This document shows, piece by piece, positions 3,281 through 36,164 of a DNA stretch of 64,000 bases. The notes beneath the pieces are model-generated. The model saw nothing but the letters and a program-made list of their open reading frames with translations. It was not told the DNA's origin and did not search any database. Source of the DNA: Candidatus Sulfopaludibacter sp. SbA3. GTDB lineage: Bacteria; Pseudomonadota; Alphaproteobacteria; Caulobacterales; Hyphomonadaceae. Made by a program: the position numbers and the translations under genes. The stretch covers positions 1-64,000 of the forward strand of contig CAMEDD010000008.1 of the NCBI GenBank assembly GCA_945913285.1, given 5' to 3'. Positions within the stretch are counted from its first letter, which is position 1, and each line of letters opens with the position of its first letter.

Positions 3281-3339
3281 CCAGTCACTCACGGGGGTGT
3301 GACTGTGCGCCGGGGCAGGGAGCGCCTATAACTTTAGTT

Positions 3340-3987: not shown

Positions 3988-3990
3988 GCC

Positions 3991-5010
3991 TTAGCCCGGC
4001 TTGCGTATCATCGACGAAACGAGCGGCGTGTAATCGGCCCAGTCACTGGCGGTCAACTCGAAGGCCCACCCAGCCGCGCGCTCGTTTATTGCCGCTGCGC
4101 GCTGCGCGCCTTCGCCCGCTTCGATCGCGCGCATCGTGATGAAGTACCCGTCGCGCTCATGGTAAGCCTGCACATCAATCTCGAGCCCGTCATGCGTCTG
4201 GGTGATATGGCGGCCCACGGGGCTGGTTTTCAAAGCCGAGGCGGGTTTGACGCCGATCGGCAGGAACCGGGTCAGCGCAAGCGCCGGGCCGGAGACCGCA
4301 ACCCGGCTGACCAACCGGTCGCCCTGATAAGGCGGTGCCGGAAGGAAGGACTGGTCGCTCGCACCAATCGCGCGCTGGAGAAACAGGCTCGCGCCGGATG
4401 AATCGGTCAGCCGCAAGGCCGAGACCGCATCCTCGCTGATATCGAGGAAGCCGAGATCCAGCCAGGCTTCGGAATTGTAGAGCGGCGGCAGATCGCCGGT
4501 GACGCGGAAGGCCTGCACGTCGCCTGGCCGGCGCGCATAGATATAGTCGCCCTTCCTGCCCGTGATCAGCGCCGAGCCCGCATCGCCGTCCGGTCCGATC
4601 ACTTCGATCAGGGCGCCGCTGCCGCCTTTGCGCGGATCACCGAGACCCAGCCAGTCAAGCTTCTCAGGGTCATCCGTACGCGGCGTATCCCACACAAGAC
4701 TTTCGAGACCGGTTGCCAACTCGGCCAGCCGGTCCTGGCGCACCGGATATCCGTCGCGCCCGCCCAGCCTCCAGCCCTCGCCAGTGGCGAACAGCGAGTA
4801 GCGCTCGTCCGCCAGGGTGACGCGGATCTCGCTTACCTCCGCGCGCTGCTCTGCAAATCCCGGCAGCACGGGCTTGCCGGTGCGCTCGCTGTTAGGTGCA
4901 AGGCTGCCCCCGCCGAGATGGGAGATGACAGCCAGCAGGCTGAGCCCGGCGGCCAGGCCGGTCATCACGAGCATGCGCCGTGTTCTCCGGGCGCCGCGCA
5001 GCGTACTCAT
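3991..5010 (-). CDS. DUF4340 domain-containing membrane-anchored protein
   Basis: This is a 339-residue protein with one N-terminal membrane segment (about residues 13-31) and a large extracytoplasmic part. The lines reading SLFATGEGWRLGGRDGYPV and later DIQVQAYHERDGYF-like beta repeats are typical of DUF4340. It is the last gene of a four-gene minus-strand operon (ATPase, permease, GldG-like, DUF4340), and its start overlaps the stop of the GldG-like gene by 4 bp. In other proteobacteria DUF4340 proteins are regularly found with GldG-type auxiliary transport proteins. The transported substrate is unknown. Confidence 0.85.
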   Translation of the reverse strand: MSTLRGARRTRRMLVMTGLAAGLSLLAVISHLGGGSLAPNSERTGKPVLPGFAEQRAEVSEIRVTLADERYSLFATGEGWRLGGRDGYPVRQDRLAELATGLESLVWDTPRTDDPEKLDWLGLGDPRKGGSGALIEVIGPDGDAGSALITGRKGDYIYARRPGDVQAFRVTGDLPPLYNSEAWLDLGFLDISEDAVSALRLTDSSGASLFLQRAIGASDQSFLPAPPYQGDRLVSRVAVSGPALALTRFLPIGVKPASALKTSPVGRHITQTHDGLEIDVQAYHERDGYFITMRAIEAGEGAQRAAAINERAAGWAFELTASDWADYTPLVSSMIRKPG

Positions 5011-6869: not shown

Positions 6870-6878
6870 GTTGCCGCC

Positions 6879-7637
6879 TCAGCCCAGCCTCTGGCGCGAG
6901 GCCCAGAGGCAATTGAGATAGACAAATGTCGCCGTGAATCCCGCGAAATAGGCAACTGCGCGCAGTTCCAGCACGCCGCGCTGGGCGCCTTCAAACTGGG
7001 TGATGAAGGAAAAGCGCGCGACCAGATCGGCAAAGCCGGTGCCAAACAGGCTCTGCACGCTCGACAGCACAAGCGGCCATCCGGCAGCGGTGAACACGAA
7101 GGCAATCACGACGCTGATCACGAAGGCCGCGACCTGGCTGCCCGTCAGCGCAGAGACGGCCGCGCCGATGGAGAGATAGGCGCCGGCCATCAGCAGGCTG
7201 ACGAAATAGGTCAGCGCGATGGCGGTATTGTCCGGGTTACCTAGGAAATTCACCGACACCCACATCGGCGCCGTGAGCATGAGGCCTGCAGCTGCAACCG
7301 TCCACGCCGCCAGCAGCTTGCCAAGCACGAGGCCCGGAATGCCGATCGGCAAGGACAAAAGTAATTCATCCGTTCCGCTCGCCCGCTCGTCTGCCCAGAG
7401 GCGCATCGCAAGCGCGGGCAGGAAAATCATGTACAGCCAGGGATGCCAGGCAAAGAAGGGCTGAAGGTCGGCCACGCCGGTATCGAAGAAACGGCCCGCC
7501 TCCCAAGTGAAGAGGCCCAGCGCCAACAGGAATACGGCAAGGAACACATAGGCCATCGGCGTCGCAAAGTATGCCGCAAGCTCTCGCCGATAGGTGGCGG
7601 AAAAGCCGCTCATCTGACGGGTCAGGAAATCCTTCAC
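6879..7637 (-). CDS. ABC transporter permease, GldF/ABC-2 type
   Basis: This is a 252-residue inner-membrane permease with about six hydrophobic segments. The N-terminal stretch ELAAYFATPMAYVFLAVFL and the motif RLWADERASGTDELLLSLP are diagnostic for the GldF-like ABC-2 family. Its start overlaps the stop of the ATPase gene by 4 bp (ATGA), so the two are translationally coupled. It would form the membrane channel of an exporter with the upstream ATPase, and the GldG-like and DUF4340 proteins as extracytoplasmic partners. Confidence 0.9.
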   Translation of the reverse strand: MKDFLTRQMSGFSATYRRELAAYFATPMAYVFLAVFLLALGLFTWEAGRFFDTGVADLQPFFAWHPWLYMIFLPALAMRLWADERASGTDELLLSLPIGIPGLVLGKLLAAWTVAAAGLMLTAPMWVSVNFLGNPDNTAIALTYFVSLLMAGAYLSIGAAVSALTGSQVAAFVISVVIAFVFTAAGWPLVLSSVQSLFGTGFADLVARFSFITQFEGAQRGVLELRAVAYFAGFTATFVYLNCLWASRQRLG

Positions 7638-8365
7638 TGCGTTTCGTCCTCGACCTGATCTGTCAGCCGGCTGAAGGCGCCTTCCAGCGTTCCGTCCTCG
7701 GACTTCCGGGCAAGGCCGGCCGGCGTGTCATCCGCGATGATCCGACCCCGGTCGATCAGAACGGCGCGGTGGCACATCGCCGGCACTTCGGTCAGCGTAT
7801 GGGTGGAGATGACGATCGCCTTGGTGGGCGCCATCCGGGCGATGAGGGCACGCACGGCGCGCTTCTGGTTGGGGTCCAGTCCGTCGGTTGGTTCGTCCAG
7901 GACCAGCACGGGCGGGTCATGCAGGATGGCGCCCGCAAGGCCCACCCGGCGCCGGTAGCCCTTCGAGAGGTCCCCGATCCGCTGGTGGCAGACGGTCAAG
8001 ATCCGCGCATCGGCAATCGACCGGTCCACCGCGCTGGCCCGCTGGTTGCGGGGCAGGGCGCGCGCCTCGGCGAGGAAGCGGAGGAATTCCGGCGGCGTCA
8101 TGTCCTCGTAAAGCGGCGCGCCTTCCGGCAGGTAGCCGAGTGCCGCCTGCGCAGCCCGCCGGTCGGAGAGGATGGATCTCCCATCAATCAGCGCGTCGCC
8201 CGCGTCCGGCTCCAGCACGCCCGCGATCATCCGCATCGTGGTCGATTTGCCCGCGCCATTGGGCCCGAGGAAGCCCAGCACCGTACCTTTTTCCACGGTG
8301 AACGACACGCCGCGCACGGCCTGTTTCGCCCCGTAGGATTTCTCGAGCGCTCTGACTTCCAGCAT
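7634..8365 (-). CDS. ABC transporter ATP-binding protein, GldA-like
   Basis: This is a 243-residue ATPase. Walker A (GPNGAGKST) is at residues 34-42, the signature LSKGYRRR at 133-140 and Walker B (VLVLDEP) at 153-159, with DGLDP following. The ATG at 8365 starts the homologous segment (MLEVRALEKSYG); the frame is open to 8416, but that extra part has no family support. It is the first gene of the four-gene export module. The close match of its motifs to ABC-2 ATPases such as GldA and NosF makes export likely; no substrate can be named. Confidence 0.92.
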   Translation of the reverse strand: MLEVRALEKSYGAKQAVRGVSFTVEKGTVLGFLGPNGAGKSTTMRMIAGVLEPDAGDALIDGRSILSDRRAAQAALGYLPEGAPLYEDMTPPEFLRFLAEARALPRNQRASAVDRSIADARILTVCHQRIGDLSKGYRRRVGLAGAILHDPPVLVLDEPTDGLDPNQKRAVRALIARMAPTKAIVISTHTLTEVPAMCHRAVLIDRGRIIADDTPAGLARKSEDGTLEGAFSRLTDQVEDETQ

Positions 8366-8453
8366 ACCGTGCAGGTGCCTCACCTTCTGGCCGCTGCTGA
8401 TAGACCGCTTGGCCACGCGCTTCCAGTGCGCAGGCTGCCAGATTACGCGGGAT

Positions 8454-9209
8454 TTAGGCGGCGAACCGCGCCACTTCCTCGATCAGGCATTTGGCGGCGA
8501 CGTCCACGATCCGGCCGCCATCGGCGGCATTGGACTGGGTCGGGTCCGATCCGATGCGGCCATCCGGGAAGTCGCGGCGGTAGCGAACGGCGTCGCTGAT
8601 CGTGCCGTTCGGAGCGATTTTTGGGCTCATCACGGTGTGCTGGCGCTCCCGGTCCGGATAGGCCCAGTAAGTGACGGAGACTTCAGAGGCGGTTGCGTGG
8701 CTGCCATGGCCGGAGGGATATAACTGGTTGCAGAGGTTCATGACTTCCCGGAAATCCCACCAGTCGCGCCGCTTCAGCACGAGGCCCGGGCGGTTGTCGG
8801 CGCCGCGCGGATCAAAGCTGCGCCGGGCATGGATTTCGGAGAATGCCGCCTCGATGGTCGAGATGTTGCCGCCATGCCCGTTAAACCAATAGATGCGCTC
8901 GAACCCGTGGCGCAGGAAGCTTTCGGTCCAGTCGGTCATCGCCGCGATCATCGTCGTCGGGCGAAGCGTGACTGTACCCGGAAAGCCAAGATGATGCTGC
9001 GCGCAGCCAACATTGAAGGCCGGCCCGATCAGCAGCTTGTCCGGCGCGAGGCTCTCGGCATGATTGGCAATGATTTCCGGGCACAGCGCATCCGTTCCGA
9101 TGAAGCCGTTCGGCCCGTGCTGCTCCATGGAGCCAATCGGGATCACGATCGTTTTCGAGGTGGTCAGCCAGGCTTCGATGTCCGGCCAGGTCGAGACGGG
9201 AAGGCGCAT
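8454..9209 (-). CDS. Creatininase family protein (metal-dependent amidohydrolase)
   Basis: This is a 251-residue member of the creatininase/MftE/FAPy-deformylase superfamily, metal-dependent hydrolases acting on cyclic or linear amides. Likely metal ligands are E29 and H31 (in GSMEQHG), D40 (in IGTDALCP), H112 (in NGHGGN) and E120. The ATG at 9209 was chosen because an AAAGGA site lies 9-10 bp upstream and homology begins there; the open frame extends to 9287 inside purK. It begins 4 bp after the purK stop, so it is probably the third gene of a purE-purK operon. That position suggests a purine- or imidazole-related substrate, which is inference only. True creatininase activity is not implied. 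Confidence 0.85.
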   Translation of the reverse strand: MRLPVSTWPDIEAWLTTSKTIVIPIGSMEQHGPNGFIGTDALCPEIIANHAESLAPDKLLIGPAFNVGCAQHHLGFPGTVTLRPTTMIAAMTDWTESFLRHGFERIYWFNGHGGNISTIEAAFSEIHARRSFDPRGADNRPGLVLKRRDWWDFREVMNLCNQLYPSGHGSHATASEVSVTYWAYPDRERQHTVMSPKIAPNGTISDAVRYRRDFPDGRIGSDPTQSNAADGGRIVDVAAKCLIEEVARFAA

Positions 9210-9213
9210 GCGG

Positions 9214-10296
9214 TTAGTCCTTTCGAGTGCCCAGGCGGCGGGTGATGTGCCCCATCTTTCGTCCCGGGCGAGCATCGCGTTTGCCATACAGCGTCAGGGT
9301 ATCGTGCGGCCCGAGGCTCGCCGGGTCGATGAGGCCGGCCTCGCCGATCAGGTTAAGCATCTCGGCATCGAACAATCGGTGCGTATCGCCGAGCGGCCAG
9401 CCCGCGACGCACCGGATGTGCTGTTCGAACTGCCCGGTCTGGCAGGCCTCGGGCGTCCAGTGCCCGGAATTGTGGACGCGCGGCGCAAACTCGTTTGCCA
9501 GCAGTGTGCCGTCCGGCAGCACGAAAAACTCCAGCGCCATCACGCCCACATGGCCGAGGGCTTCGGTGAGGGTCACAGCTTTCCGCCGCGCCGCGTCCTC
9601 TACCGTTTTCGGCAGGCCCGAGGGCACGGATGACTTCGAGAGGATCCCGTTTTCGTGCGTGTTGCGCGGCGGCGCCCAGGTGCAGGTCTCCCCGGTCGCC
9701 GAGCGCGCCACCAGAACCGAGATCTCGCACTCGAACGGCACGGGCGCTTCAAGGATGCAGGGGCGTTTTCCGAGCGCCGCCCAGGCTTCGGCGATGCCGC
9801 CATGCCCGAGGCGCACCCAGGCCTGGCCCTTGCCATCATAGCCTTCGCGCCGCGTCTTCATCAGGCCGTGTCCGCCGAGCGCCTCCAGCGCCGGAACGAT
9901 ATCGCCCTCCGCGTCGATGACGCGGTAATCGGCCGTCGCGATTCCGGTTCCCTGGAGGAAGGCTTTTTCGCTCGCCCGGTCCTGTGACACCGAGAGGGAC
10001 TGCGCGCCGGGCCGCACTGGAATTCCAGCGGCCTCGATGGCGGTGAGGGCTTCGACGGGGACATTCTCGAACTCGAGCGTGACCGCGTCGCAATCGCGCG
10101 CAAAGGCTTCAAGGGCGCCGCGGTCTGCCCAGCCCGCCTTTCGGGCGCCGGTGGCAACTCGTCCTGCAGGCGGATCGTCTTCGGGCGAATAGATCAGCAT
10201 GTCGAAGCCAAGCTGCGCCCCGGCAACGGCGAGCATCCGGCCCAGCTGGCCGCCCCCGAGAATGCCGATCGTCGCGCCGGGCCGAAGCGGCGTCAT
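9214..10296 (-). CDS. purK: 5-(carboxyamino)imidazole ribonucleotide synthase PurK
   Basis: PurK carboxylates aminoimidazole ribonucleotide to N5-CAIR with ATP and bicarbonate in de novo purine synthesis. The product is 360 residues, the usual length. The N-terminal motif [12 protein letters not shown] (about residues 10-21), the ATP-grasp central part with [13 protein letters not shown], and the C-terminal [16 protein letters not shown] block are all present. Its start overlaps the purE stop by 4 bp, and the creatininase-family gene follows 4 bp after its stop. Confidence 0.97.
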
Positions 10297-10787
10297 CCCT
10301 CTGGAACCTCTTTCACGCTCGCCGTTTGGGCTGCGCGGAAGGCGTCGAGCCTGGCGGCCACGCCGGCATCCTGCAGGGCGATGATGGAGGCGGCGAGCAG
10401 GCCCGCATTGGCCGCGCCCGCCTCGCCAATCGCCAGTGTGCCGACCGGGATGCCCTTCGGCATCTGTACGATGGAGAGCAGGCTATCGAGGCCTGACAGG
10501 GTTTTTGACTGCACGGGCACGCCCAGCACGGGCAGGGAGGTCATCGCCGCCGCCATGCCGGGCAGGTGGGCCGCGCCGCCCGCGCCCGCAATGATCACCT
10601 GGATCCCGCGTCCCCTGGCCGTTTTGGCATACTCCGCCAGGCGGTCCGGCGTGCGGTGCGCCGAGACGATCTTCGCCTCATAGGCCACGCCCATCGCTTC
10701 GAGCATCCGTGCCGCTTCCTGCATCACCGGCCAGTCGGACTGGCTGCCCATGATAATGCCCACTACCGGAGCTTTGTCCGTCTCCAT
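10293..10787 (-). CDS. purE: N5-carboxyaminoimidazole ribonucleotide mutase PurE
   Basis: PurE converts N5-CAIR to CAIR, the step after PurK. The product is 164 residues, a normal class I PurE. Motifs GSQSDWPVM near residue 14, SAHRTPDRL, and [11 protein letters not shown] are intact. The ATG at 10787 was chosen; the open frame continues upstream to 10952 only because a tandem repeat there is translatable, and that extra sequence has no PurE homology. It overlaps purK by 4 bp and heads the operon. Confidence 0.97.
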
Positions 10788-10821
10788 ACCCGCCTCGCTG
10801 CCGGAAAACGTGCATCTTAGG

Positions 10822-10915
10822 GCGGCGGTCCGGAAAGTGGAACCCGGTTTCCAGAAAACCGCCGCGCGCGGCGAAAGAGCGGCGGTCCGGAAAGCGGAAC
10901 CCGGTTTGCAGAAAA
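10822..10915. repeat. Two direct copies of a 37-bp intergenic repeat upstream of purE
   Basis: Copies at 10822-10858 and 10879-10915 match at 35 of 37 positions and are 57 bp apart. The core (GGAAAGTGGAACCCGGTTT) recalls a dispersed intergenic repeat seen in many alphaproteobacteria in which a GGAA...GGAACC...GGTTTTC core recurs. The pair occupies the purE leader, so it may be transcribed. No further copy was seen in this window. Confidence 0.8.
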
Positions 10916-10996
10916 ACTGCCCGTTCGGCCGCTCGCGCAGCAGGCGAAACATCCTTGGGGCTCTACAGGTCTGCGTTTTGATTGTATCTTCGTCTC

Positions 10997-11683
10997 ATGG
11001 CGAAAGACGAAATCCACACCTATTCCGGCGAGTACCGAGCCTTGCTGGACGCGCTCGGCCTGGACCTGCCACGGCTGGACCGGCGCACGCGCGCTGCCAT
11101 TGAGGCGCTCTGCGAGGAAGTGGTTTCGCTGCGCAACGAGGCAGGCGGCCTGCGCGAGGCGCTCGCCGATTCCGAGCTTCTGGCGGACAATGATACGCTC
11201 TGCCCGGTCTTCAACCGCCGCGCGTTCGAGCGCGAAGTGCGCCGCGAAATCGCCCTTTCGGGCCGCTTCCAGACACCCCTTTCGCTGATCTTCATCGACC
11301 TCGACAATTTCAAGCTGGTCAATGACATCTACGGTCACGCCGCGGGCGACAGCGTGCTCCTGAAAGTTGCGGGCATCCTGATGGACAGTACGCGCGAAAC
11401 CGATATCGTTGGCCGTCTCGGCGGGGATGAGTTCGGCGTCGTGCTTGCCCATGCCACGTTCGATGACAGCCAACTCAAGGCCGCTCAGCTTGCGGCGGCC
11501 ATTGACGCGCTTGAAGTGCGCGACCAGTCGGATCGCGCCACGCCGATCGTCCAGATTGGCGCCTCCTGCGGCGTCGTCGAGTGGCGGGGCGGGCAAAGCG
11601 CCGCCGCGCTCATCGCCCGCGCCGATCAGGCGATGTTTCTTCAGAAATCAAGACGCAAGGCGACCGGCCGCGCCATCCGCTGA
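10997..11683 (+). CDS. Diguanylate cyclase (GGDEF)
   Basis: This is a 228-residue protein. Residues 1-60 are alpha-helical with no recognised sensor domain, and a GGDEF domain covers about residues 65-225. The active-site motif GGDEF is intact at 142-146, and an inhibitory-site RxxD (RETD, 133-136) lies five residues before it, so an active, product-inhibited cyclase making c-di-GMP is expected. No membrane segment is seen, so it is cytoplasmic. The start at 10997 (MAKDEIHTYS) was preferred to 10982. It is divergent from purE. Confidence 0.9.
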   Translation: MAKDEIHTYSGEYRALLDALGLDLPRLDRRTRAAIEALCEEVVSLRNEAGGLREALADSELLADNDTLCPVFNRRAFEREVRREIALSGRFQTPLSLIFIDLDNFKLVNDIYGHAAGDSVLLKVAGILMDSTRETDIVGRLGGDEFGVVLAHATFDDSQLKAAQLAAAIDALEVRDQSDRATPIVQIGASCGVVEWRGGQSAAALIARADQAMFLQKSRRKATGRAIR

Positions 11684-11810
11684 GCCATCCTTGGGCGGAT
11701 TACTGACAGTTTAACAAATCCGGTGAGGTCTCGCATGACTTGGCGGGCCCCTTGTGGCATCTTGCGGAAACGGCCCGAGAGTGCCGTGCTGAAAAACAAG
11801 GAGACTGCCC

Positions 11811-11978
11811 ATGTCGCTCAATGGCCGGATCAGCGAGCTCGCTGCAAAGCACCGCCACCTCGACGAACAGATCGCCGCCGAACAGAAGCGCCCCTCCGGC
11901 GATGATCTGACGGTCCAGGACCTCAAGCGACAGAAACTCAAGATCAAGGAACAGTTGCGCCAGCTGAAAGCCAGCTGA
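11811..11978 (+). CDS. YdcH/DUF465 family small protein
   Basis: This is a 55-residue acidic-basic coiled-coil protein (MSLNGRISELAAKHRHLDEQ at its start). The pattern LxxKHxxLDxxI followed by LKRQKLKIKEQL is the DUF465 (YdcH) signature. A good ribosome site (AAGGAGA) lies 8-9 bp upstream. Function is unknown for the family. It converges on the PhoD-like gene. Confidence 0.88.
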   Translation: MSLNGRISELAAKHRHLDEQIAAEQKRPSGDDLTVQDLKRQKLKIKEQLRQLKAS

Positions 11979-11999
11979 CGCGCACATCTGTTCGGCTTT

Positions 12000-12021
12000 C
12001 GCCCGGGATCAGACCCGGGCG
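12000..12021. terminator. Hairpin between converging DUF465 and PhoD-like genes
   Basis: A perfect 8-bp stem (CGCCCGGG at 12000-12007, CCCGGGCG at 12014-12021) with a 6-nt loop overlaps the stop codon of the minus-strand gene. Neither side has a clear T run, so a role as a terminator is only plausible. Confidence 0.4.
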
Positions 12022-13700
12022 AGTTCCGTCACGCCGGCCTTGGAATACGACGCCTTGAACGCCGCTGCGGTTTCCGACGTGTAGTCGGGCCCATAAATCG
12101 TGGAGACCTTCTTGAACGCCGCAGTGACATCTTCGCTCGTCAGCGTAACCAATGTGTAGCCGTGGCCAAACGGATCGTGCCAGATGATCTCATCATTGGC
12201 GTCGGCAACCTGCTGGCCGAGGTCCGGCATGGCTTTGACATAAGCGCCCATGCCGGGTGAGCTGATCGAGGTGCAGCCGAATTCCACGCCGCGCCGTTCC
12301 CCGACCGCATCGAACAGTTCGTTGGCATAGGCCGTGTGCGTATCACCGGCCAGCGTCACCAGCGAAGCGCCAGCGTCTCTCGCGCTGCTATAAAGCCGTT
12401 CGCGCGCTGCTGGGTAGCCGTCCCAGGCATCAAGGTTCCAGGGCAGGCCAAGCGCTGTGAACGGAATAAATGCCAGCACTTCGGGCTGGTCCTGCGCATC
12501 GATCTGCGCCTGCGTCATGGTTTTCGTGAAGTCCGGCAGCTTGTTCTTCGCCATCACCACCTGGTTGGCCAGCACCTGCCAGGCCGCGCCGGACTGGACC
12601 GACGCCGTGAACTCCGCCGCCAGCCAGGCTTCCTGCTCGGCGCCGAGCATCGTGCGCGCCGGATCGGCCACAGTCGCCATTGTCGCCATCACCCGCGCGC
12701 CAATCTCGGCCGGCGTGGTCGCCCCGGCGAGCGCATCACCCCAGCTCAGCGGCTCCGACCGGCCGGTCAGACGCGATTCAAGGGCATGCACCGTTGCCAC
12801 GTCGCCAAACCGGAACGTGCGCCAGACGGCAGATGTGACCTCACCCGGTTTCGGCTCGCGCAGCGGCATCCACTCGAAATAGGCCTGCAGCGCGCGCTGC
12901 TTGCGCTCCGTCCAGTCGCCTTCGCCCTTGTCAGGGTTATGGTTCTCGGCGCCGGTCCTGTAGGAATCGTTGGTGCTCTCGTGGTCGTCCCAGGTGCAGA
13001 TCCAGGGCGCAGCGGCATGGGCGGCCTGAAGGTTCGCATCACTCTTGTATTGCGCGTGGCGGCGACGGTAATCCGACAGCGAGACAATCTCCGTCGCTGG
13101 ATCATGCTTTCGGCCGAGTTTCTCGGCAACGTCCCCGCCATAGCCGTCCGTGCCATACTCATAGAGATAGTCGCCGAGGTGCACGATCGCATCGAGGCCC
13201 TGCTCCTTCGACAGTTCCTGATAGGCATTGAACAGGCCGAACTGCCAGTTTGAGCAGGACACAACGCCCAGCTTCACCGGCGCGGTGCCATCCGCCGCCG
13301 TCGTCCGCGTGCGCCCTACAGGCGACAGCACCTCACCGTTTGCCGCAACCGCTGCAAACCGGTACATGTATTCGGTGGCGGGTTTCAGTCCCGCCGCATC
13401 CATCTTCACCGTGTAATCGCGCGCCTCAGACGTGACGAACTCGCCAAACGCAGCAGGCGACGATGCGCCCGCTTCGGTCACGGTCCATTTCACGGTCACC
13501 GGCCCCGTGCCCGAGAGCGGCGTCACCCGGGTCCACAAGATCACCCGGTCGGGCAGCGGATCACCGGAAGCTACGCCATGCTGGAAGGCCAGCTCGCCCT
13601 CGAAGCTGGCCGCGGCCTTTGGCGTTGTCTGGCAAGCCGCCAGGGCGACCGTGCCGAGGGCTGCGCCGCCCAGAAGTCCGCGCCGTGTAAGAAGTGTCAT
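12009..13700 (-). CDS. PhoD-like alkaline phosphatase, TAT-exported lipoprotein
   Basis: This is a 563-residue metallophosphatase of the PhoD family, acting on phosphate esters outside the cytoplasm. The N-terminus carries a twin-arginine signal (LTRRGLLGGAAL, residues 4-15) and a lipobox-like ALAAC (C23). An N-terminal Ig-like PhoD_N domain (about 35-130) comes before the catalytic part with CSNWQFG, HLGDYLYEYG, WDDHESTND and TLAGDTHTAY, which supply the Ca/Fe ligands of PhoD. It stands alone, divergent from the pseudouridine synthase gene. No Pho box was identified by eye. Confidence 0.92.
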   Translation of the reverse strand: MTLLTRRGLLGGAALGTVALAACQTTPKAAASFEGELAFQHGVASGDPLPDRVILWTRVTPLSGTGPVTVKWTVTEAGASSPAAFGEFVTSEARDYTVKMDAAGLKPATEYMYRFAAVAANGEVLSPVGRTRTTAADGTAPVKLGVVSCSNWQFGLFNAYQELSKEQGLDAIVHLGDYLYEYGTDGYGGDVAEKLGRKHDPATEIVSLSDYRRRHAQYKSDANLQAAHAAAPWICTWDDHESTNDSYRTGAENHNPDKGEGDWTERKQRALQAYFEWMPLREPKPGEVTSAVWRTFRFGDVATVHALESRLTGRSEPLSWGDALAGATTPAEIGARVMATMATVADPARTMLGAEQEAWLAAEFTASVQSGAAWQVLANQVVMAKNKLPDFTKTMTQAQIDAQDQPEVLAFIPFTALGLPWNLDAWDGYPAARERLYSSARDAGASLVTLAGDTHTAYANELFDAVGERRGVEFGCTSISSPGMGAYVKAMPDLGQQVADANDEIIWHDPFGHGYTLVTLTSEDVTAAFKKVSTIYGPDYTSETAAAFKASYSKAGVTELARV

Positions 13701-29849: not shown

Positions 29850-31286
29850 TTACGGAAGGGCGATCCAATTGCCGTGGAAGCCGGGCGGGATCCGGTTTGG
29901 GATGGCGATGGTTGCCACGGGCGGGCCCGTAAAATTGCGGGCGTCGAGGATCACCAAATCGCTCGTGCCGCCTGCAGTGTTGACGACGTAGCCGATCAGC
30001 CAGCCTTCGTCTTCCCCGGCATCGGCATGCGCGGCCACGAACACGAACTCACCCGGCATGCAGCCTTCGCCGAAATCGTGCACCTCGCGGGTGCGGGCGC
30101 CGAGGTCGTGCTTGAACAGGCGCGGGTCGCCGACAAAACCCGGGTCACCGTCGGCGGGCAGGGCGAGGGTATAGGCATAGCGGTAAGGCTGCCCGAGGCG
30201 GCGTTCGTCCGGGCGCGGAAACTCCTGAGGTGAGGTGTCGATGACCGTGCGCGTGACGCGGCGCGCAATCGGATCTATCTCGAGGCTTTCGAACGCCGTG
30301 CGGGAACTGTTCGGACCGAAATGTCCGTCTGCGAACATATCAGTGTGGACGCAGGCATCCATTAAGACCTTGCCATCATCGGTTTCGAAGGCATTGGCGG
30401 GATGGAAGATGTAGCATGGCTCCACGCTGCACCAGATGATCTCGTCGCCGCGGCCTTCGCGTGGCAGGAGGCCGATTCGGGCTGCGTGTTTCGGATTCCA
30501 ACGATAGGGGAAGGTGTCTCCGGCGATGAGTGCGGGCATCGAGAAGGTGACCGGCAGGTCCATCACGATGATGTAGTTCTGCGTGATCATGCAGTCATGG
30601 ATCGAGGGGCCGTCCTGCACAGTGATGGGTTCGTGGCGGCGCACGGCGCCGTCCTTCGTGATCACGGTGTGCCAGATGGTGGCGGGGTCCGTCGCGTTAT
30701 AGCAGATGGCGTGGGTCTCGCCGGTCAGCGGATCGAGATGCGGGTGGGCGGTGAAGCCTTTCGACAGCAGGCCTTCAAAATAGCTCCGCGCACGGGTTTC
30801 CAGGAGGTCAGAGACTTCGACGGGCAGGCCGCCCGCTTCGACGAGCGCCCAGATCCTGCCGCCGACGGCGACGACGTTGGTGTTCGGGCTTTCGAAACTG
30901 CTGCGCGGGCCGGGCGTTCTGGGCTCTCCCAGCGCGGCATTGATGGCGGGCGAGCGGACCCAGCGATTGCGGTACCAGAGGGCCTCTCCGTTCTGGAGGC
31001 GCACGCCGTGCAGCATGCCGTCGCCCGAGAACCAGTGATGGGTGGCGGGGTTTGGCGCCTCGAACGGGTTCGGGCCGTTGCGCAGGTAGAGGCCGTTCAG
31101 GCCCGCCGGGATGGTGCCGGTGACTTTCAGGTCGGTGACCGTGTGCTCCTCGGTAAGGGGCGTATGAATGCCGGTCAGGTAGGGGTTCTGTTTCGAAGAT
31201 TTGCGATGCGCGCGGTTAAAGTGCGCAACCCCCATGATGCCTTTGGTGACGGCGCCTCGGATGGCGGCTTCGACGAGGCTGGACAT
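29850..31286 (-). CDS. Carotenoid oxygenase family protein
   Basis: This is a 478-residue non-heme iron dioxygenase that cleaves double bonds in carotenoids, apocarotenoids or stilbene-like compounds. Four His ligands of the iron fit H183 (AHPHLDP), H230 (SIHD), H295 (FHPANAFE) and H471 (GFHGNW), as required for the seven-bladed propeller. LRNGPNPFEAP near residue 70 is family-typical. An AAAGGA ribosome site lies before the ATG at 31286. It is divergent from a TetR-family gene, which probably regulates it. No carotenoid synthesis gene is in the window, so the substrate is open. Confidence 0.93.
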   Translation of the reverse strand: MSSLVEAAIRGAVTKGIMGVAHFNRAHRKSSKQNPYLTGIHTPLTEEHTVTDLKVTGTIPAGLNGLYLRNGPNPFEAPNPATHHWFSGDGMLHGVRLQNGEALWYRNRWVRSPAINAALGEPRTPGPRSSFESPNTNVVAVGGRIWALVEAGGLPVEVSDLLETRARSYFEGLLSKGFTAHPHLDPLTGETHAICYNATDPATIWHTVITKDGAVRRHEPITVQDGPSIHDCMITQNYIIVMDLPVTFSMPALIAGDTFPYRWNPKHAARIGLLPREGRGDEIIWCSVEPCYIFHPANAFETDDGKVLMDACVHTDMFADGHFGPNSSRTAFESLEIDPIARRVTRTVIDTSPQEFPRPDERRLGQPYRYAYTLALPADGDPGFVGDPRLFKHDLGARTREVHDFGEGCMPGEFVFVAAHADAGEDEGWLIGYVVNTAGGTSDLVILDARNFTGPPVATIAIPNRIPPGFHGNWIALP

Positions 31287-31334
31287 AATGCAGGTCCTTT
31301 CGGGATTTTCTGAGCTTGCGGCGGCGTGGGATAA

Positions 31335-31353
31335 TGTTTACACCAGTAACATG
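31335..31353. promoter_or_regulatory. Candidate TetR operator between carotenoid oxygenase and tetR
   Basis: ATGTTTACACCAGTAACAT is an imperfect inverted repeat (ATG-TTTAC / GTAA-CAT with one extra base). Its right end includes the start codon of the regulator at 31351. The position between divergent genes and overlap with the start suit autoregulation by a TetR protein. Not tested against other genomes. Confidence 0.4.
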
Positions 31354-31980
31354 TCCGAGAAAGATAACGCTGTCAACATCACATCCGAGAAAAATCGCTA
31401 CCATCATGGCGATTTGCGCTCGGCGCTGGTCGAAGAAGGACTGAAGCTGATCGACATGGGTCCGGTGGACGCGCTCAGCCTGCGCGAGATCGCTCGCCGG
31501 GCCGGGGTGTCGGCGACGGCGGTTTACCGGCATTTTCCGGACAAGGCGGCGCTGCTGGGCGCGCTTTGCCTCGAAGGCCATGCGCGAATGGCGAAGGCGT
31601 TCGAGGCGGCGATGGCGAGCGCGTCGCCGGGCGTCGAAGCGTTCAATGCAATGGGGCGGGCTTATGTCAACTTCGCGCTCGCGCACCCCTCACTGTTCCG
31701 GCTGATGATGGCGCAGACGGACGGGCCCGCGCCTGTGCCGGCGCCCATCGCGGGGGGCGGCGGCTCCGACGGGATGCAGATCCTGGTCAACGCCATCGAG
31801 GGCCTGTTCGGGCCGGATGCGCCTGTGCATCTGCACGAGGCAGGGCGGCTCAGGGCCTGGTCGCTGGTGCACGGCCTCGCCATGCTGATGCTGGATGGGC
31901 AGGTGCCGTCCGAGCCCGCGCTGATCGAAGCCGTGGTGGACGCGAGCGTGCTTCAGGGCACTGAGCCGGTGCGCCGGTAG
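31351..31980 (+). CDS. TetR/AcrR family transcriptional regulator
   Basis: This is a 209-residue regulator. The helix-turn-helix covers about residues 40-66 (ALSLREIARRAGVSATAVYR, then HFPDKAALL). The C-terminal part has the RAYVNFALAHPSLFRLM pattern of the WHG (TetR_C_33) ligand-binding domain. The start at 31351 was chosen because family homology begins at NRYHHGDLRSAL and the frame upstream overlaps the divergent gene. It is expected to control the carotenoid oxygenase gene, inferred from orientation and the candidate operator. Confidence 0.9.
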   Translation: MSEKDNAVNITSEKNRYHHGDLRSALVEEGLKLIDMGPVDALSLREIARRAGVSATAVYRHFPDKAALLGALCLEGHARMAKAFEAAMASASPGVEAFNAMGRAYVNFALAHPSLFRLMMAQTDGPAPVPAPIAGGGGSDGMQILVNAIEGLFGPDAPVHLHEAGRLRAWSLVHGLAMLMLDGQVPSEPALIEAVVDASVLQGTEPVRR

Positions 31981-32086: not shown

Positions 32087-32812
32087 ATGGAGATAATTGA
32101 CAACGTCTCAAATATGAGGTTTTCTCAATTTGCGATGACGATCTTACCTCCAGCCGGAACGGGCAAGCGCGGACGGACGCTTGACGGGCTCCTCGCAGCC
32201 TTGCAATCGCTCCTGCTCGAGCGGGGTGCAGGCGCCTTTTCAATCAGTGACATCTCCGAGCGGGCCGGCGCTGCGCAGGGGACATTCTATAACTATGCCA
32301 GCAGCGTCGATGACCTCGTCGAAGAACTTGCCACACTTCTGTCCGCTTCGCTCGCCGTCCTCGGGCGCCGGGCGCCCTGCGCAGAGACCGATCCGGTTGC
32401 GGCCTTCGTATTCAAGACGCGCCGGACGCTCGGCATTTCCGTGCGCGCGCCGGACTATGGCCGGCTGCTCTTTGATTCCGGCCTTCCCGCCGACCGGCTG
32501 CTGGCCGACCTTCGCCGCGACCTGGAGGCAGACATTCGCATGGGCACGGCATCCGGGGTCTTTAAGCCGGCCAAGCCGGCGCTCTCCGCCAGCCTGATCG
32601 CCGGGTGCATGCTTGGCGCCGGGCTTGATCTTCATCGAGGCAAATTGCCGAAGTCCGCCATTGAAGACGCGGCGGCAGAAATGCTGGTGATGCTGGGCCT
32701 TCCGCGCGCCGCCGCGCAGCAAGCAGCTGCGGTACGGATCCGTTTCGAGGCGCCGGGCCCGTTGCCTCTGCAATGGCTCGCGCTGGTCTCTGTTGAAGGA
32801 ACATCACCATGA
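32087..32812 (+). CDS. TetR/AcrR family transcriptional regulator heading a catabolic operon
   Basis: This is a regulator of up to 241 residues. The helix-turn-helix lies in FSISDISERAGAAQGTFYNY followed by SSVDDLVEEL. The C-terminal domain is not assigned to a ligand class. Three in-frame ATGs compete as the start (32087, 32114, 32135); none has a good ribosome site. A TACAAT at 32066-32071 could be a -10 for the first, while TTGACA at 32097-32102 would favour 32135. Its stop overlaps the oxidase start by 4 bp (ATGA), so it is cotranscribed with the enzymes it probably controls. Confidence 0.85.
   Translation: MEIIDNVSNMRFSQFAMTILPPAGTGKRGRTLDGLLAALQSLLLERGAGAFSISDISERAGAAQGTFYNYASSVDDLVEELATLLSASLAVLGRRAPCAETDPVAAFVFKTRRTLGISVRAPDYGRLLFDSGLPADRLLADLRRDLEADIRMGTASGVFKPAKPALSASLIAGCMLGAGLDLHRGKLPKSAIEDAAAEMLVMLGLPRAAAQQAAAVRIRFEAPGPLPLQWLALVSVEGTSP
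32107..32118. promoter_or_regulatory. Small palindrome at the start of the tetR-oxidase operon
   Basis: CTCAAATATGAG (CTCA, 4-nt spacer, TGAG) follows a TTGACA hexamer (32097-32102) inside the first codons of the regulator as called. If translation starts at 32135, this would be an operator in the leader. Short and therefore weak evidence. Confidence 0.25.
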
Positions 32813-34149
32813 AGCGACCGCGCGGCAAGGGCGTTGCGATGCGCCGCGGCGACAAGGGCTTTGACGCGGCCGTCCTTGCAACTTCGTTCTCCGGACATGA
32901 TCCGGGACGGCGCCCTGACATCTATGTTCAAGCCAACGATGCCGCCGGCGTCGTTGCGGCCGTGAAGCAGGCGCGCGAACAGGGGCACAAGATCAGCCTT
33001 TGCTCGGGCGGGCACAGCTGGGCGCAGAACCATCTGCGAGCGGGCGGGCTATTGCTCGATCTCTCCCGCCTCAGCACCATCGACATAAATGCCAGCGCCC
33101 GAACCGCGCGCGTCGGACCCGGATGCTGGAGCGTCGATCTTGACCGCGCGCTGAAGCGGCTCGGCCTGTTCTTCCCGGTTGCGCATGCGCCGGATGTCTG
33201 TCTCGGCGGGTTCCTCCTTCAAGGTGGCTTTGGCTGGAACAGCCGCGCACTCGGTCTTGCGTGCGAGAGCGTCGTCGGTCTCGATGTCGTGCTCGCCGAC
33301 GGCTCGCAGGTCCATGCCAGCGCAGAGCAGAATTGCGACCTCTATTGGGCAGCACGCGGCGCGGGCCCAGGCTTCTTCGGCGTGGTCACGGCCTTCCATC
33401 TCAAACTCCATGAGCGCCCCAAGGTGACCGCCATGACGCTGCAGGTGTTCCCGGAGCGATGGCTGGAAGACGTCTTCACCTGGGCGCATGAGATTGGCCC
33501 CAATGTGGCCCGCAGTGTCGAATTCCAGATCCTGATCACGCCCAAGACGCTGTTTACGGGCAAGCCGGGTGTCGAGGTGCTTGCCCCGGTGATGGCCGGG
33601 AGCTGGGCGGATGCCCGGCGCGACACTGCGTTCATGCGGCAAAGCCCGTTGCGCAAGCGGGCGAGCGTCACCACGCCGCTTCTGCCGCTGTCGACGATGC
33701 GAATGTCTGAAGCTGCCGCACAGACGCACTTTCCGCCGAAGATGCATTGGTGTGTCGATAACATCTGGACAGACGCGCCCATCGCCGACTTGCTGCCGGG
33801 CCTCCGGCATGTCGCAGATACCCTGCCGCCAGCGCCCTCGCATGCCCTTTGGCTGAACTGGCAGCCGGACCGCGCGCGTCCCGACATGGCATTCTCGATG
33901 GAGGCGGGCTTTTACTTCGCCGCCTATGGCGAGTGGCGACGCAAGGAAGACAATGCGCGCTATGCAAGCTGGGCGACGGAGCGCATCGCCGAGATGGCGC
34001 ACCTTGGAAAGGGTATTCAGCTGGCGGACGAAAACCTCCGCCGCCGCCCGGCGCGCTTCATGAGTGACGCCAACCGTGCCCGCCTTGAACAGATCCGCGC
34101 CAAGTACGATCCAGATGGCCGGTTCAATTCCTATGCGAGCGCGTCATGA
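32809..34149 (+). CDS. FAD-dependent oxidase of the BBE type, likely bicovalent flavin
   Basis: This is a 446-residue oxidoreductase with a PCMH/FAD_binding_4 domain and a C-terminal BBE segment (YDPDGRFNSY). H69 in CSGGHSW and C131 in PDVCLGG are 62 residues apart, the spacing of His104 and Cys166 that both bind FAD in berberine bridge enzyme. A bicovalent flavin is therefore likely. No signal peptide is seen, so it is cytoplasmic. Such enzymes oxidise alcohols, phenols, amines or terpenoid phenols with oxygen. It overlaps the regulator upstream and the PhlG-like gene downstream by 4 bp each. Substrate unknown. Confidence 0.88.
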   Translation: MKRPRGKGVAMRRGDKGFDAAVLATSFSGHDPGRRPDIYVQANDAAGVVAAVKQAREQGHKISLCSGGHSWAQNHLRAGGLLLDLSRLSTIDINASARTARVGPGCWSVDLDRALKRLGLFFPVAHAPDVCLGGFLLQGGFGWNSRALGLACESVVGLDVVLADGSQVHASAEQNCDLYWAARGAGPGFFGVVTAFHLKLHERPKVTAMTLQVFPERWLEDVFTWAHEIGPNVARSVEFQILITPKTLFTGKPGVEVLAPVMAGSWADARRDTAFMRQSPLRKRASVTTPLLPLSTMRMSEAAAQTHFPPKMHWCVDNIWTDAPIADLLPGLRHVADTLPPAPSHALWLNWQPDRARPDMAFSMEAGFYFAAYGEWRRKEDNARYASWATERIAEMAHLGKGIQLADENLRRRPARFMSDANRARLEQIRAKYDPDGRFNSYASAS

Positions 34150-34973
34150 AGGCCAGTAAACCGATTGCAGGGCGCCATCTCGGATGGTCAGACGCAGACT
34201 TGCGCAGCAAGCCCTACGCAGGCCTATGGCGCGCGCAGATGGCGCCGCTTGCGCCGCACGCCCGGCTGGCACTCGACGAAGGCCCGCTGGCAGAACCCCT
34301 CCTGCCGCCGCTCTCGCGCGCCAACGACCTGTTTGCAGGCGGCGGTATCGAGAACGGCTTTGCGCTGACTGCGGATGGCGGTATGCGCATCGCGATCCAA
34401 ACAGAGATGCCGGATGTCACGCCCGCCATGATCGATTGGTGGTTCGGTTGGCACTCGGACAGCCCGGAACGCTACAAGCTCTGGCACCCCAGCGCGCATG
34501 TGCACGCGGCGTGGCAAAAACCGCCGCAACCGGGCACGCGCGGTCGCAAGCGCTATATCAATCAAACCTCGATCGTCGATGAGTATATCGGCAGCGACCT
34601 CCTTCGCCTGGCCATCAGCTTCATTGATCCTGGCGAGTTGGCATTGACCGATCCGTCGTTGCAGGACGACATGAAGGCTACGGCGATCTGTGCTCACAGC
34701 ACGCTGGCTGGGCTACCGCTTAAGGCCGGCTACCTCGTGCACCTCGTGCAGGCCGTAACGGGGGGAAGCGTTATGCGCTCCCGGTTCTGGATCGGCGGCG
34801 CGAATGTCTCGGCCAGGCACATCTTTGCTGCGCCGCTGGTGCCGATTGCGCGCCGGCAAGTGCGCCCCACCGAGGCCGATGCCCGGGCCCTTATCGTGCA
34901 CTGCGCGCAGGAAATGGCTCACCTCGCCTCGTTCCTGCCCGAGGCTTACGGCGCCTTCAAAGACACCGATTGA
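34146..34973 (+). CDS. PhlG-like C-C hydrolase (DAPG hydrolase family)
   Basis: This is a 275-residue protein resembling 2,4-diacetylphloroglucinol hydrolase, a zinc enzyme that removes an acetyl group by C-C cleavage. The segment MIDWWFGWHSDSPERYKLWHP (residues 95-115) is the family hallmark. H114, E146, H252 and E256 (HxxxE) match the spacing of the PhlG zinc ligands H129, E160, H270 and E274. The start overlaps the oxidase stop by 4 bp. The exact substrate need not be diacetylphloroglucinol; no phl biosynthesis genes are present. Part of the regulator-oxidase-hydrolase operon. Confidence 0.85.
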   Translation: MKASKPIAGRHLGWSDADLRSKPYAGLWRAQMAPLAPHARLALDEGPLAEPLLPPLSRANDLFAGGGIENGFALTADGGMRIAIQTEMPDVTPAMIDWWFGWHSDSPERYKLWHPSAHVHAAWQKPPQPGTRGRKRYINQTSIVDEYIGSDLLRLAISFIDPGELALTDPSLQDDMKATAICAHSTLAGLPLKAGYLVHLVQAVTGGSVMRSRFWIGGANVSARHIFAAPLVPIARRQVRPTEADARALIVHCAQEMAHLASFLPEAYGAFKDTD

Positions 34974-35003
34974 AACGCGCGCTCAGGCGCATTGGAGACA
35001 TTG

Positions 35004-36164
35004 ATGCTGCGGATTCTCATGGCGGCCCCCGCGTTAGCGGCCGCAGGATTGCTGGCGACCGGACTGGGTGTGTTTGACTCCGCTGCTACGGTGCAGGCCG
35101 CGAGCGGCCGGGCGACGCACTCCGCAGAAACAATCCTGATTGCGCCGACGGCGACAGCCCTCACTTTTGCACGGGCGGGCGGAAAAACCATCGGGGTGAC
35201 GTCCTACACACAAGGGCAGGTGAGCGGCGTTGCACTCGGTGCGGTCATGGCGCCCGGTGAAGACGCCGTCGACCTTGTCAACCGCCTTGGCTACGATGCG
35301 GTTCAGTCCGAAATAGAGCGCGCAGAAACATCGGTCGAGATCAAGGTATCCGATCTGGAGATACCTGTAGATATCGGATCTGAGCATATTGCTGCGGCGA
35401 CAAACTATCGTGAACATGCCAGGGAAGCCTCGGTCGAAGGCGGGCCGTTCCTGTTTCCGAAATATGTTCAGCCGACGTCCGCGCGCGCTGGCATTCCGGC
35501 AGGCGAGGCACTGCTCGACTACGAAGTTGAACTCTGCCTGCTGACGATGCGCCCGATTAACCCGGCAGACGGTGCCAGCGGCGGGTTGATCTTGTGCAAT
35601 GACGTGACTGACCGCGCGGCGCTCCTGCGTAAGATTGATCCGGACCACCCGGAATCCGGCACCGGCTTCACCAGCGGCAAGAGCGCGCCAGGCTTTCTGC
35701 CGGTCGGCGATCTCTTTGTGGCGCCGCGCGATGTGAAAGCGTTCAGCCGCGATCTTGTTCTGCAACTTTCGGTCAATGGTGTGGAGCGCCAGCGCTCATC
35801 GGTCAGCCTTTGGATTTGGGACATCGACCGCATATTGCTCGAGGCGTCACGGTTGCGCGGTCAAGTCTGGAATTTCGCAGACGCAGCGGCGCGCCTCCCG
35901 TTCGATGCCGACGGATTTATCCCTGAGCGTACCTTGATCCTTACCGGGACCCCGGGCGGCACGGTGTTCAAGGGCATCTACCCCAGTGCCTATGTGCGCG
36001 GCGGACTGGCCTGGCTAGCGGGCGGCTGGAACGGGCCGCTCGCCGGGCAGGTTGTCGAAAGCCAGATTGCGACCGCACGCACTTCGGGCGCCTACCTGCG
36101 CCCGGGAGACTTGGTGACCATCCAGGTCGACCAGCTGGGCCGGCTGGAAAACCAGGTCGAATAA
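35004..36164 (+). CDS. Fumarylacetoacetate hydrolase family protein with an export signal
   Basis: This is a 386-residue protein. The C-terminal FAH fold (about residues 120-380) has the metal ligands E174 and E176 (DYEVEL) and D200 (CNDVTDR), the lysine K226 (TSGKSAPG), and TGTPGGTVF. The family hydrolyses C-C bonds in beta-diketo acids or decarboxylates oxo acids. Unusually, residues 1-32 form a Sec-type signal or anchor (MLRILMAAPALAAAGLLATG, then small residues to VQA), while the family is normally cytoplasmic. An earlier ATG at 34992 adds four residues. It is 30 bp after the PhlG-like gene and ends the operon. Confidence 0.88.
   Translation: MLRILMAAPALAAAGLLATGLGVFDSAATVQAASGRATHSAETILIAPTATALTFARAGGKTIGVTSYTQGQVSGVALGAVMAPGEDAVDLVNRLGYDAVQSEIERAETSVEIKVSDLEIPVDIGSEHIAAATNYREHAREASVEGGPFLFPKYVQPTSARAGIPAGEALLDYEVELCLLTMRPINPADGASGGLILCNDVTDRAALLRKIDPDHPESGTGFTSGKSAPGFLPVGDLFVAPRDVKAFSRDLVLQLSVNGVERQRSSVSLWIWDIDRILLEASRLRGQVWNFADAAARLPFDADGFIPERTLILTGTPGGTVFKGIYPSAYVRGGLAWLAGGWNGPLAGQVVESQIATARTSGAYLRPGDLVTIQVDQLGRLENQVE

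What the first reader, a model, noticed from the sequence alone, without database searches (positions are those of the whole stretch)
32087..36164. Candidate undescribed catabolic operon: TetR, bicovalent FAD oxidase, PhlG-like hydrolase and exported FAH-fold hydrolase
Seen: four plus-strand genes, the first three coupled by ATGA overlaps and the fourth 30 bp on. Known: BBE-type flavoenzymes oxidise phenols or alcohols, PhlG removes an acyl group from an acylphloroglucinol, and FAH-fold enzymes cleave beta-diketo acids. Inferred: an oxidase followed by two different carbonyl-adjacent C-C hydrolases suggests stepwise breakdown of an acylated phenol or polyketide-like compound. No known pathway that I recall has exactly this set.
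Basis: partly seen in the sequence, partly recalled or inferred. Interest (0 to 1): 0.8.

Follow-up and report, generated by a model that had tools for sequence, protein, structure and literature searches.

The report
Conserved oxidase–PhlG hydrolase catabolic operon
A set of four genes whose core, a flavin oxidase next to a carbon–carbon-bond-cutting PhlG-type hydrolase, recurs side by side in dozens of other bacteria, many from water, and so probably marks an undescribed pathway for breaking down acylated phenol-like compounds.

Summary
Four plus-strand genes (TetR, FAD oxidase, PhlG-like hydrolase, FAH-fold hydrolase) are present; the first three overlap by ATGA and the fourth follows 30 bp on. 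Corrections: TetR probably starts at 32135, behind a 32-bp palindromic, operator-like site (32097–32128). "Bicovalent" is not supported: the FAD-linking His is invariant in 46 aligned sequences, but no Cys is.

In a scan seeded with this oxidase family, 71 of 80 retained loci carry a PhlG-like gene within 600 bp, in either order, with correlated divergence. The pair also sits on a Mycobacterium plasmid. The full four-gene order occurs in seven further loci, but FAH is optional and was not found in five relatives' genomes. Recurrent neighbours include sulfatases, GSTs, an acyl-CoA ligase, enoyl-CoA hydratases and, in four Burkholderiales loci, a hydroxyquinol-type dioxygenase.

Best reading: a regulated catabolic module that cleaves an acyl (or oxidised alkyl) group from a polyphenol-like compound. 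The substrate is unknown. My paper searches, with capped listings, showed no description of it. Known families, new combination.

The parts
32097..32128 (+). 32-bp imperfect palindrome TTGACA-N4-CTCA-N4-TGAG-N4-TCTCAA, probable autoregulatory operator overlapping the promoter
   Evidence: Conserved in alignment with 5 relatives; 1 match in the window with up to 3 mismatches, 0 in 100 shuffles; in the 3.02-Mb genome the 22-base left part matches only here with 0 mismatches, plus this site's own reverse reading and one other place with 1 mismatch. Its role as TetR operator is inferred.
32135..32812 (+).
   Evidence: TetR_N 35.9 bits, TetR_C_40 27.4 bits; coding score picks 32135; relatives align from this ATG
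32809..34149 (+). FADox: EncM/6-HDNO-like FAD-dependent oxidase, no N-terminal hydrophobic segment, probably a single His-FAD link
   Evidence: FAD_binding_4 8.1e-29; EncM best PDB sequence match 3.6e-34; model pLDDT 92.3, Foldseek best EncM TM 0.85, then 6-HDNO; His69 invariant in 46 aligned sequences
34146..34973 (+). PhlG / phloretin-hydrolase family C-C hydrolase
   Evidence: PF18089 1.1e-52; PDB phloretin hydrolase 5xe5/5xey 1.7e-32, PhlG 3hwp 3.2e-27; positions H118, E146, H252, E256 align with the phloretin hydrolase/PhlG residues I recall as the metal ligands
35004..36164 (+). FAH-fold hydrolase with N-terminal signal/anchor; optional member of the set (alternative TTG start 34992)
   Evidence: PF01557 2.5e-23; E174, E176, D200, K226 invariant in 13 aligned sequences; model pLDDT 80.7 with an unreliable N-terminus, nearest folds YisK, diketo-deoxyrhamnonate hydrolase, HpcE

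Best explanation
This is a TetR-controlled, inducible catabolic operon. Its conserved core is a cytoplasmic pair, FADox + PhlG-like hydrolase, that removes an acyl side chain from a polyphenol-like or cyclic polyketide-like compound. Most likely sequence (inferred): the inducer releases TetR from the palindrome in front of its own gene. The His-linked FAD oxidase oxidises the substrate, for example an alkyl-carbinol or benzylic carbon to an aryl ketone. The metal-dependent PhlG-like enzyme then hydrolyses the ring-acyl C-C bond, releasing a carboxylic acid and a polyhydroxyarene. The exported FAH-fold enzyme, present only in some lineages, cleaves a related beta-dicarbonyl compound outside the cytoplasm. 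Further steps lie elsewhere in the genome. Shown: gene families, aligned putative metal-site positions, conserved pairing and overlap, a conserved palindrome. Inferred: co-transcription, operator role, location of the enzymes, order of reactions, substrate class. Not known: the substrate.
For: Pairing: 15 of 18 PhlG-bearing genomes among 398 of the order have FADox next to it (the window's genome is one of the 15). 71 of 80 FADox loci have PhlG within 600 bp, and 3 of the other 9 are cut by a contig end. Both gene orders occur (45 PhlG first, 25 FADox first, 10 without an abutting same-strand PhlG), so the pairing is not just inherited order. 39 of 70 adjacent gene calls overlap by 4 bases. 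FADox and PhlG distances correlate over 76 loci, r 0.71, 0 of 2000 permutations as high. The same pair lies beside an IclR regulator on a Mycobacterium riyadhense plasmid. Catabolic context, counted as gene clusters anywhere in the fetched stretch (up to 10 kb each side) of the 80 loci: hydroxyquinol-type dioxygenase (L081 member: nearest PDB PnpC 1.8e-63, hydroxyquinol 1,2-dioxygenases among the next) and FAA hydrolase in 4, flavin hydroxylase in 4, AMP-ligase in 13, enoyl-CoA hydratases in 9 and 5, FadL-type porin in 5, sulfatase in 13, GST in 18. PhlG positions recalled as metal ligands align.
Against: No substrate, product or expression data. The four-gene order is the minority form, and FAH is not found at E<=1e-30 in G036, G340, G317, G379 or G297. 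The ring-cleavage genes are in Burkholderiales relatives; the one tested, the intradiol dioxygenase, gave no match in the window's own genome (genome 93% complete, no positive control). The Tyr of the PhlG 'SRYW' motif is Phe here. FADox also occurs without PhlG: 6 of 80 loci with enough flank, three of them beside an AMP-ligase; the Streptomyces plasmid copy; and two distant relatives (252 and 238 bits) with no PhlG in about 1.5 kb either side. An exported FAH does not fit a purely cytoplasmic pathway. The scan was seeded only with PhlG-linked FADox and kept the best 80 of 240, which biases it towards pairing.
Confidence: 0.55

Rival explanations
1. Aliphatic route. FADox is a secondary-alcohol oxidase and the PhlG- and FAH-like enzymes are beta-diketone hydrolases acting on a long-chain, sulfated and possibly halogenated lipid or polyketide, working like polyvinyl-alcohol breakdown (recalled) rather than on a phenol.
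For: In L088, L093, L095 and L105 the same locus carries sulfatase, GST and haloalkane-dehalogenase-family genes, with a sulfatase-maturing FGE-type gene in L105. In sister genome G036 a dehalogenase-family gene and a GST sit beside the operon. The window genome holds a block of similar content (two sulfatase-family genes, FGE-type, dehalogenase-family) on another contig. A FadL-type porin and AMP-ligase/enoyl-CoA hydratases in other loci fit a fatty chain.
Against: Hydroxyquinol-type ring cleavage and an aromatic-type hydroxylase stand with the pair in Burkholderiales. PhlG and phloretin hydrolase, the nearest solved relatives, act on acylphloroglucinols. Dehalogenase-family membership does not prove dehalogenation.
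Confidence: 0.2
2. Detoxification or quorum quenching rather than growth: the operon inactivates an acylphloroglucinol- or polyketide-type antibiotic or signal, as PhlG does with 2,4-diacetylphloroglucinol under TetR control (PhlH).
For: Local TetR control suggested by one palindrome at its own promoter. PhlG is repressed by the TetR protein PhlH and released by its substrate (PMC8003664 passages). Many carriers have no recognised pathway gene beside the pair.
Against: Sulfatase, CoA ligase, enoyl-CoA hydratase and ring-cleavage genes beside the pair in several lineages point to use as carbon source. Among the clusters scanned the only transporter of possible efflux type is an MFS protein, in 3 loci; most neighbours were not scanned.
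Confidence: 0.2
3. Flavonoid or dihydrochalcone catabolism: the PhlG-like enzyme is an aerobic phloretin hydrolase, FADox acts on the flavonoid or chalcone, and the released phenylpropanoate goes through CoA ligase and enoyl-CoA hydratase.
For: Nearest PDB sequences are phloretin hydrolases. Ligase and hydratases occur in 13, 9 and 5 of 80 loci. Phloretin hydrolase is a known step of flavonoid breakdown (PMC10470551 passages). Sulfatases could serve sulfated flavonoids (recalled).
Against: No chalcone isomerase or enoate reductase appeared among the neighbour proteins scanned, though most neighbours were not scanned. Similarity to the solved enzymes is remote, and the score against the DAPG-hydrolase equivalog is 100 bits with cut-off 600.
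Confidence: 0.2

Closest known systems
PhlG, 2,4-diacetylphloroglucinol hydrolase of Pseudomonas (with TetR PhlH)
   Same: Same Pfam family and aligned metal-site positions; TetR-controlled gene for a C-C hydrolase
   Different: Far below the DAPG-hydrolase equivalog cut-off (100 of 600 bits); paired with a flavin oxidase instead of the phl biosynthetic genes; of 9 PF18089 genomes in a phylum sample only the window's own has FADox in the roughly 1.5-kb flanks held
Phloretin hydrolase (M. abscessus 5xe5/5xey; Eubacterium ramulus)
   Same: Closest solved sequence; acyl-aryl C-C hydrolysis
   Different: Remote (E 1.7e-32); no FADox partner mentioned in the passages read
EncM / 6-hydroxy-D-nicotine oxidase / BBE-like oxidases
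   Same: Fold (TM 0.85 to EncM), FAD_binding_4, invariant His
   Different: 24-25% identity to EncM; no BBE C-terminal domain found by Pfam; no conserved second (Cys) link; a distinct subfamily tied to PhlG
FAH superfamily (HpcE, diketo-deoxyrhamnonate hydrolase, YisK)
   Same: Fold and conserved acidic residues
   Different: Extra N-terminal region and signal/anchor; weak similarity (PDB best 1.8e-14 with the profile)

Membership tests
PhlG / DAPG-hydrolase family (PF18089) | Pfam score above gathering cut-off | tested here: met
   179.3 bits against 22.7
PhlG / DAPG-hydrolase family (PF18089) | Metal-site residues (two His, two Glu; identity recalled) | tested here: met
   H118, E146, H252, E256 align with 5xe5 and 3hwp; His invariant, Glu nearly invariant in 17 aligned sequences
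DAPG hydrolase sensu stricto (NF047887) | Equivalog score of 600 bits | tested here: not met
   100.2 bits
PhlG / DAPG-hydrolase family (PF18089) | Hydrolysis of an acyl-aryl C-C bond | not testable with these tools
   needs an enzyme assay
Bicovalent BBE-type oxidases | FAD_binding_4 domain and His for 8-alpha linkage | tested here: met
   His69 invariant in 46 aligned sequences
Bicovalent BBE-type oxidases | Second, 6-S-cysteinyl linkage | tested here: not met
   No invariant or nearly invariant Cys among 46 aligned sequences; Cys131 near the expected motif is in 5 of 15, the window and four close relatives; exact canonical position recalled; the link itself was not measured
Bicovalent BBE-type oxidases | BBE C-terminal domain in Pfam | tested here: not met
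   Only FAD_binding_4 found at E<=0.001
EncM-like flavoenzymes | Fold and overall similarity | tested here: met
   Foldseek best hit EncM, TM 0.85, 24% identity
EncM-like flavoenzymes | Flavin-N5-oxide oxygenase activity | not testable with these tools
   The position aligned with EncM T139 is Val130, invariant in 46 aligned sequences; the role of T139 is recalled
FAH superfamily | PF01557 domain and conserved acidic residues | tested here: met
   E174, E176, D200 invariant in 13 aligned sequences; their role as metal ligands recalled
FAH superfamily | Metal-dependent beta-dicarbonyl cleavage | not testable with these tools
   needs an assay

The most novel reading that the evidence does not exclude
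A widespread, modular pathway, undescribed in the papers searched, for sulfated and sometimes halogenated alkyl- or acyl-polyphenols. The FADox-PhlG pair is a new two-step C-C cleavage unit: oxidation of the carbon next to the ring to a ketone, then hydrolysis of the ring-carbonyl bond. Interchangeable side genes (sulfatase, dehalogenase-family, GST, CoA ligase, ring cleavage, exported FAH) adapt it to particular algal or plant metabolites.
Probability: 0.25. Interest if true: 0.75.

Novelty: new variant of a known kind. Interest (0 to 1): 0.55.

Why it matters
PhlG-type hydrolases are known from a few soil, gut and mycobacterial enzymes. Here a subfamily is tied to a particular flavin oxidase in dozens of bacteria, many apparently aquatic by record title, and on an actinobacterial plasmid. 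That marks an unassigned route for aromatic or polyketide carbon. The pair is small, occurs in cultured strains and has a conserved candidate operator, so its inducer and substrate are directly testable.

Tried and rejected
Considered and rejected. (1) Chance neighbours: pairing in 71 of 80 loci, in both orders. (2) The neighbouring carotenoid-cleavage dioxygenase (29850–31286) as part of the pathway: a tblastn of it against L020–L116 gave one hit, 37% over 157 residues, about 8 kb from the pair in L067, and it has its own divergent TetR. (3) Bicovalent FAD. (4) FAH as an obligate step. (5) A 2,4-diacetylphloroglucinol hydrolase proper. (6) The window genome running the Burkholderiales ring-cleavage route by that dioxygenase: no match, without a positive control.

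Led nowhere. Rfam and tRNA scans of the window were empty. The phylum-wide FADox search gave 3 of 398 genomes, the window's own plus two weak partial matches without PhlG nearby. Paper searches showed no paper on a PhlG–FAD-oxidase pair, but several listings were capped (20 of 469, 10 of 373,825, 10 of 1,736, 12 of 1,091), and only titles and abstract beginnings were seen; EncM together with PhlG gave 0 papers. I read passages of PMC8003664 and PMC10470551 and the abstract and section list of PMC12911418; of the other papers only the listing. Enzyme residue roles, FAH and haloalkane-dehalogenase motifs and the polyvinyl-alcohol comparison are recalled.

Limits. Neighbour genes in relatives come from my own codon-usage gene caller, which misses or mis-starts some genes (e.g. 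L064's PhlG, found by the six-frame search). Family names of clusters rest on one or a few scanned members. Cluster counts are rough: c7 misses at least one sulfatase (L033/L045), and c10 mixes dehalogenase-like and other alpha/beta hydrolases. One search counts 71 pairs within 600 bp, one search counts 70 same-strand abutting pairs. In one search, 8 of 16 FAH gene calls pass the hydrophobicity cut of 1.6; several others have truncated or mis-called starts. That is weaker than 'all exported'.

Full report
What is there. The window is part of contig C8 of a 3.02-Mb, 98-contig genome. Of the four nearest relatives in the named scan, three are labelled Alphaproteobacteria or Hyphomonadaceae and one Candidatus Sulfopaludibacter, probably a wrong label. 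Four plus-strand genes stand at 32087/32135–36164. The junctions read ATGA, ATGA and a 30-bp gap. Pfam calls them TetR, FAD_binding_4, DAPG_hydrolase and FAA_hydrolase. HisB follows convergently. A carotenoid-cleavage dioxygenase with its own TetR lies upstream.

Start of the operon. Aligning the upstream DNA with five relatives shows a conserved block directly before the ATG at 32135. It is a 32-bp imperfect palindrome, matched once in the window with up to 3 mismatches and in 0 of 100 shuffles. In the whole genome its 22-base left part is found without mismatch only here, besides this site's own reverse reading and one other place, each with one mismatch. I read it as the operator and promoter of the TetR gene (inferred).

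The enzymes. FADox is nearest by sequence to EncM (3.6e-34) and by model (pLDDT 92.3) to EncM and then 6-hydroxy-D-nicotine oxidase. His69 is invariant in 46 aligned sequences but no Cys is, so a second covalent link is not a family feature. The PhlG-like protein is nearest to phloretin hydrolase (1.7e-32) and PhlG (3.2e-27), and the positions recalled as the metal site align. Its score against the DAPG-hydrolase equivalog is 100 bits, cut-off 600. The FAH-fold protein has an N-terminal hydrophobic segment, a poorly predicted linker, and a fold nearest YisK, diketo-deoxyrhamnonate hydrolase and HpcE.

Is the association real? In 398 genomes of the order, 18 have a PhlG-like match at E<=1e-10, and in 15 of the 18, the window's own genome included, FADox is adjacent. 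The three without it are the three weakest matches. A scan of a collection of 84,980 species genomes with a FADox alignment gave 240 relatives, of which 80 were kept. PhlG lies within 600 bp in 71 of 80; 3 of the other 9 are at contig ends and 6 are true absences: L058, L059, L062, L094, L114, L115. Gene order differs: PhlG first in 45, FADox first in 25, no abutting same-strand PhlG in 10. Of 70 adjacent gene calls, 39 overlap by four bases. Pairwise distances of the two proteins correlate over 76 loci, r 0.71, with 0 of 2000 permutations as high. Shared species ancestry contributes to this. The scan was seeded with PhlG-linked FADox, so the fraction is biased upwards. Checks outside that seeding are mixed. 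A plasmid search with the window FADox alone found four records, of which I opened two. The one from Mycobacterium riyadhense has FADox followed directly by a PF18089 gene. The one from Streptomyces chartreusis has a FAH-family gene and no PhlG in 19.3 kb. Two distant FADox relatives from a phylum sample have no PhlG in about 1.5 kb either side. In the same kind of sample, 9 of 398 genomes have PF18089, and only the window's own has FADox in the flanks held. So the link belongs to one FADox branch and one PhlG branch, not to either whole family.

The fourth gene. TetR, FADox, PhlG and FAH stand in this order in L025, L027, L028 (the same contig as L090), L072, L105, L106 and L112, seven loci besides the window; L105 and L106 look nearly identical. 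L025 and L027 are not among the 80. More distant FAH relatives stand near the pair in L047–L050, L052, L055, L060 and L084. In all, 13 of 80 loci have one. In five relatives of the window (G036, G340, G317, G379, G297) no match at E<=1e-30 exists in the genome held. The window's FAH is 51–52% identical to those of L025, L027 and L028, close to the 55% of FADox and 53–55% of PhlG for the same loci. This fits an old four-gene form with losses, but gain is not excluded.

What else travels with the pair. Counted as clusters anywhere in the fetched stretch of the 80 loci: regulators of four clusters in 62 (scanned members TetR, TetR and IclR; the fourth cluster holds the window's own TetR), GST in 18, sulfatase in 13, AMP-ligase in 13, enoyl-CoA hydratases in 9 and 5, FadL-type porin in 5, and in 4 each an intradiol dioxygenase, a flavin hydroxylase and a FAA hydrolase (names from scanned members). 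The L081 dioxygenase's nearest solved relatives are PnpC and hydroxyquinol 1,2-dioxygenases. All 15 sulfatase-cluster gene calls have a C-x-P-x-R motif. In L088, L093, L095 and L105 the locus also has haloalkane-dehalogenase-family genes, and the sister genome G036 has one beside the operon with a GST. The window's genome has a block of similar content (sulfatases, FGE-type, dehalogenase-family) on contig C2 and GST homologues. An MFS transporter cluster occurs in 3 loci.

How it most likely works. TetR keeps the operon off until a substrate-derived ligand binds. FADox oxidises the compound, PhlG hydrolyses a ring–acyl bond, and other genes use the two halves. The order (FADox before PhlG) is a guess: it would explain why a retro-acylation enzyme needs an oxidase partner. 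The opposite order, with FADox oxidising the released phenol, is open. The exported FAH is the least explained part.

Rivals. An aliphatic sulfated/halogenated lipid route, antibiotic or signal inactivation, and flavonoid breakdown each keep a fair share of probability, and nothing here decides between them.

Novelty. All four families are known. The PhlG–FADox pair as a conserved unit was not in any listing of the searches made, several of them capped, in a library that lacks most subscription papers. I rate it a new variant of a known kind.

Noticed in passing
window 29850-31980: 8'-apo-carotenoid 13,14-cleaving dioxygenase (733 bits, above the 675 cut-off) transcribed divergently from its own TetR-family gene; looks like a separate unit.
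   Followed up: partly
L143 (G000:C2) 3324-12714: Block in the window's genome with two arylsulfatase-family genes, an FGE-type sulfatase-maturing gene (197.8 bits), a weak TetR match below cut-off and a haloalkane-dehalogenase-family gene; similar in content to the block that adjoins FADox-PhlG in L093, L095 and L105.
   Followed up: partly
L145 7830-16670: Streptomyces chartreusis plasmid: FAH-family gene divergent from FADox (47.6%), followed by SDR, amidohydrolase, alcohol dehydrogenase, VOC, thiamine-dependent E1-type enzyme and muconolactone-isomerase-family genes, but no PhlG; possibly another pathway with the same oxidase.
   Followed up: partly
L068 8129-9834 and L079 2145-3819: Two PhlG-like genes in tandem in front of FADox.
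   Followed up: no
L031 10927-11316, L032 11731-12120, L033 8900-9301: A small protein of 129-133 aa, hydrophobic and without Pfam match (one member, L044, scanned), precedes PhlG in three loci.
   Followed up: no
L034, L035, L036: More divergent PhlG-like genes without FADox; L036's has a hydrophobic N-terminus and sits beside a large secreted-looking protein and a flavoprotein-like ORF (by eye); L034 and L035 share four conserved upstream neighbours.
   Followed up: no
L058, L059, L062: FADox without PhlG, directly followed by an AMP-ligase (L059 member scanned) in Burkholderiales-labelled contigs; the L062 genome also has a FADox-PhlG-ring-cleavage locus (L082).
   Followed up: no
plasmid hits H6-H11: PhlG-like genes (34-35% identity, 73-75% coverage) annotated as hypothetical or unannotated on Sulfitobacter pontiacus plasmids.
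   Followed up: no
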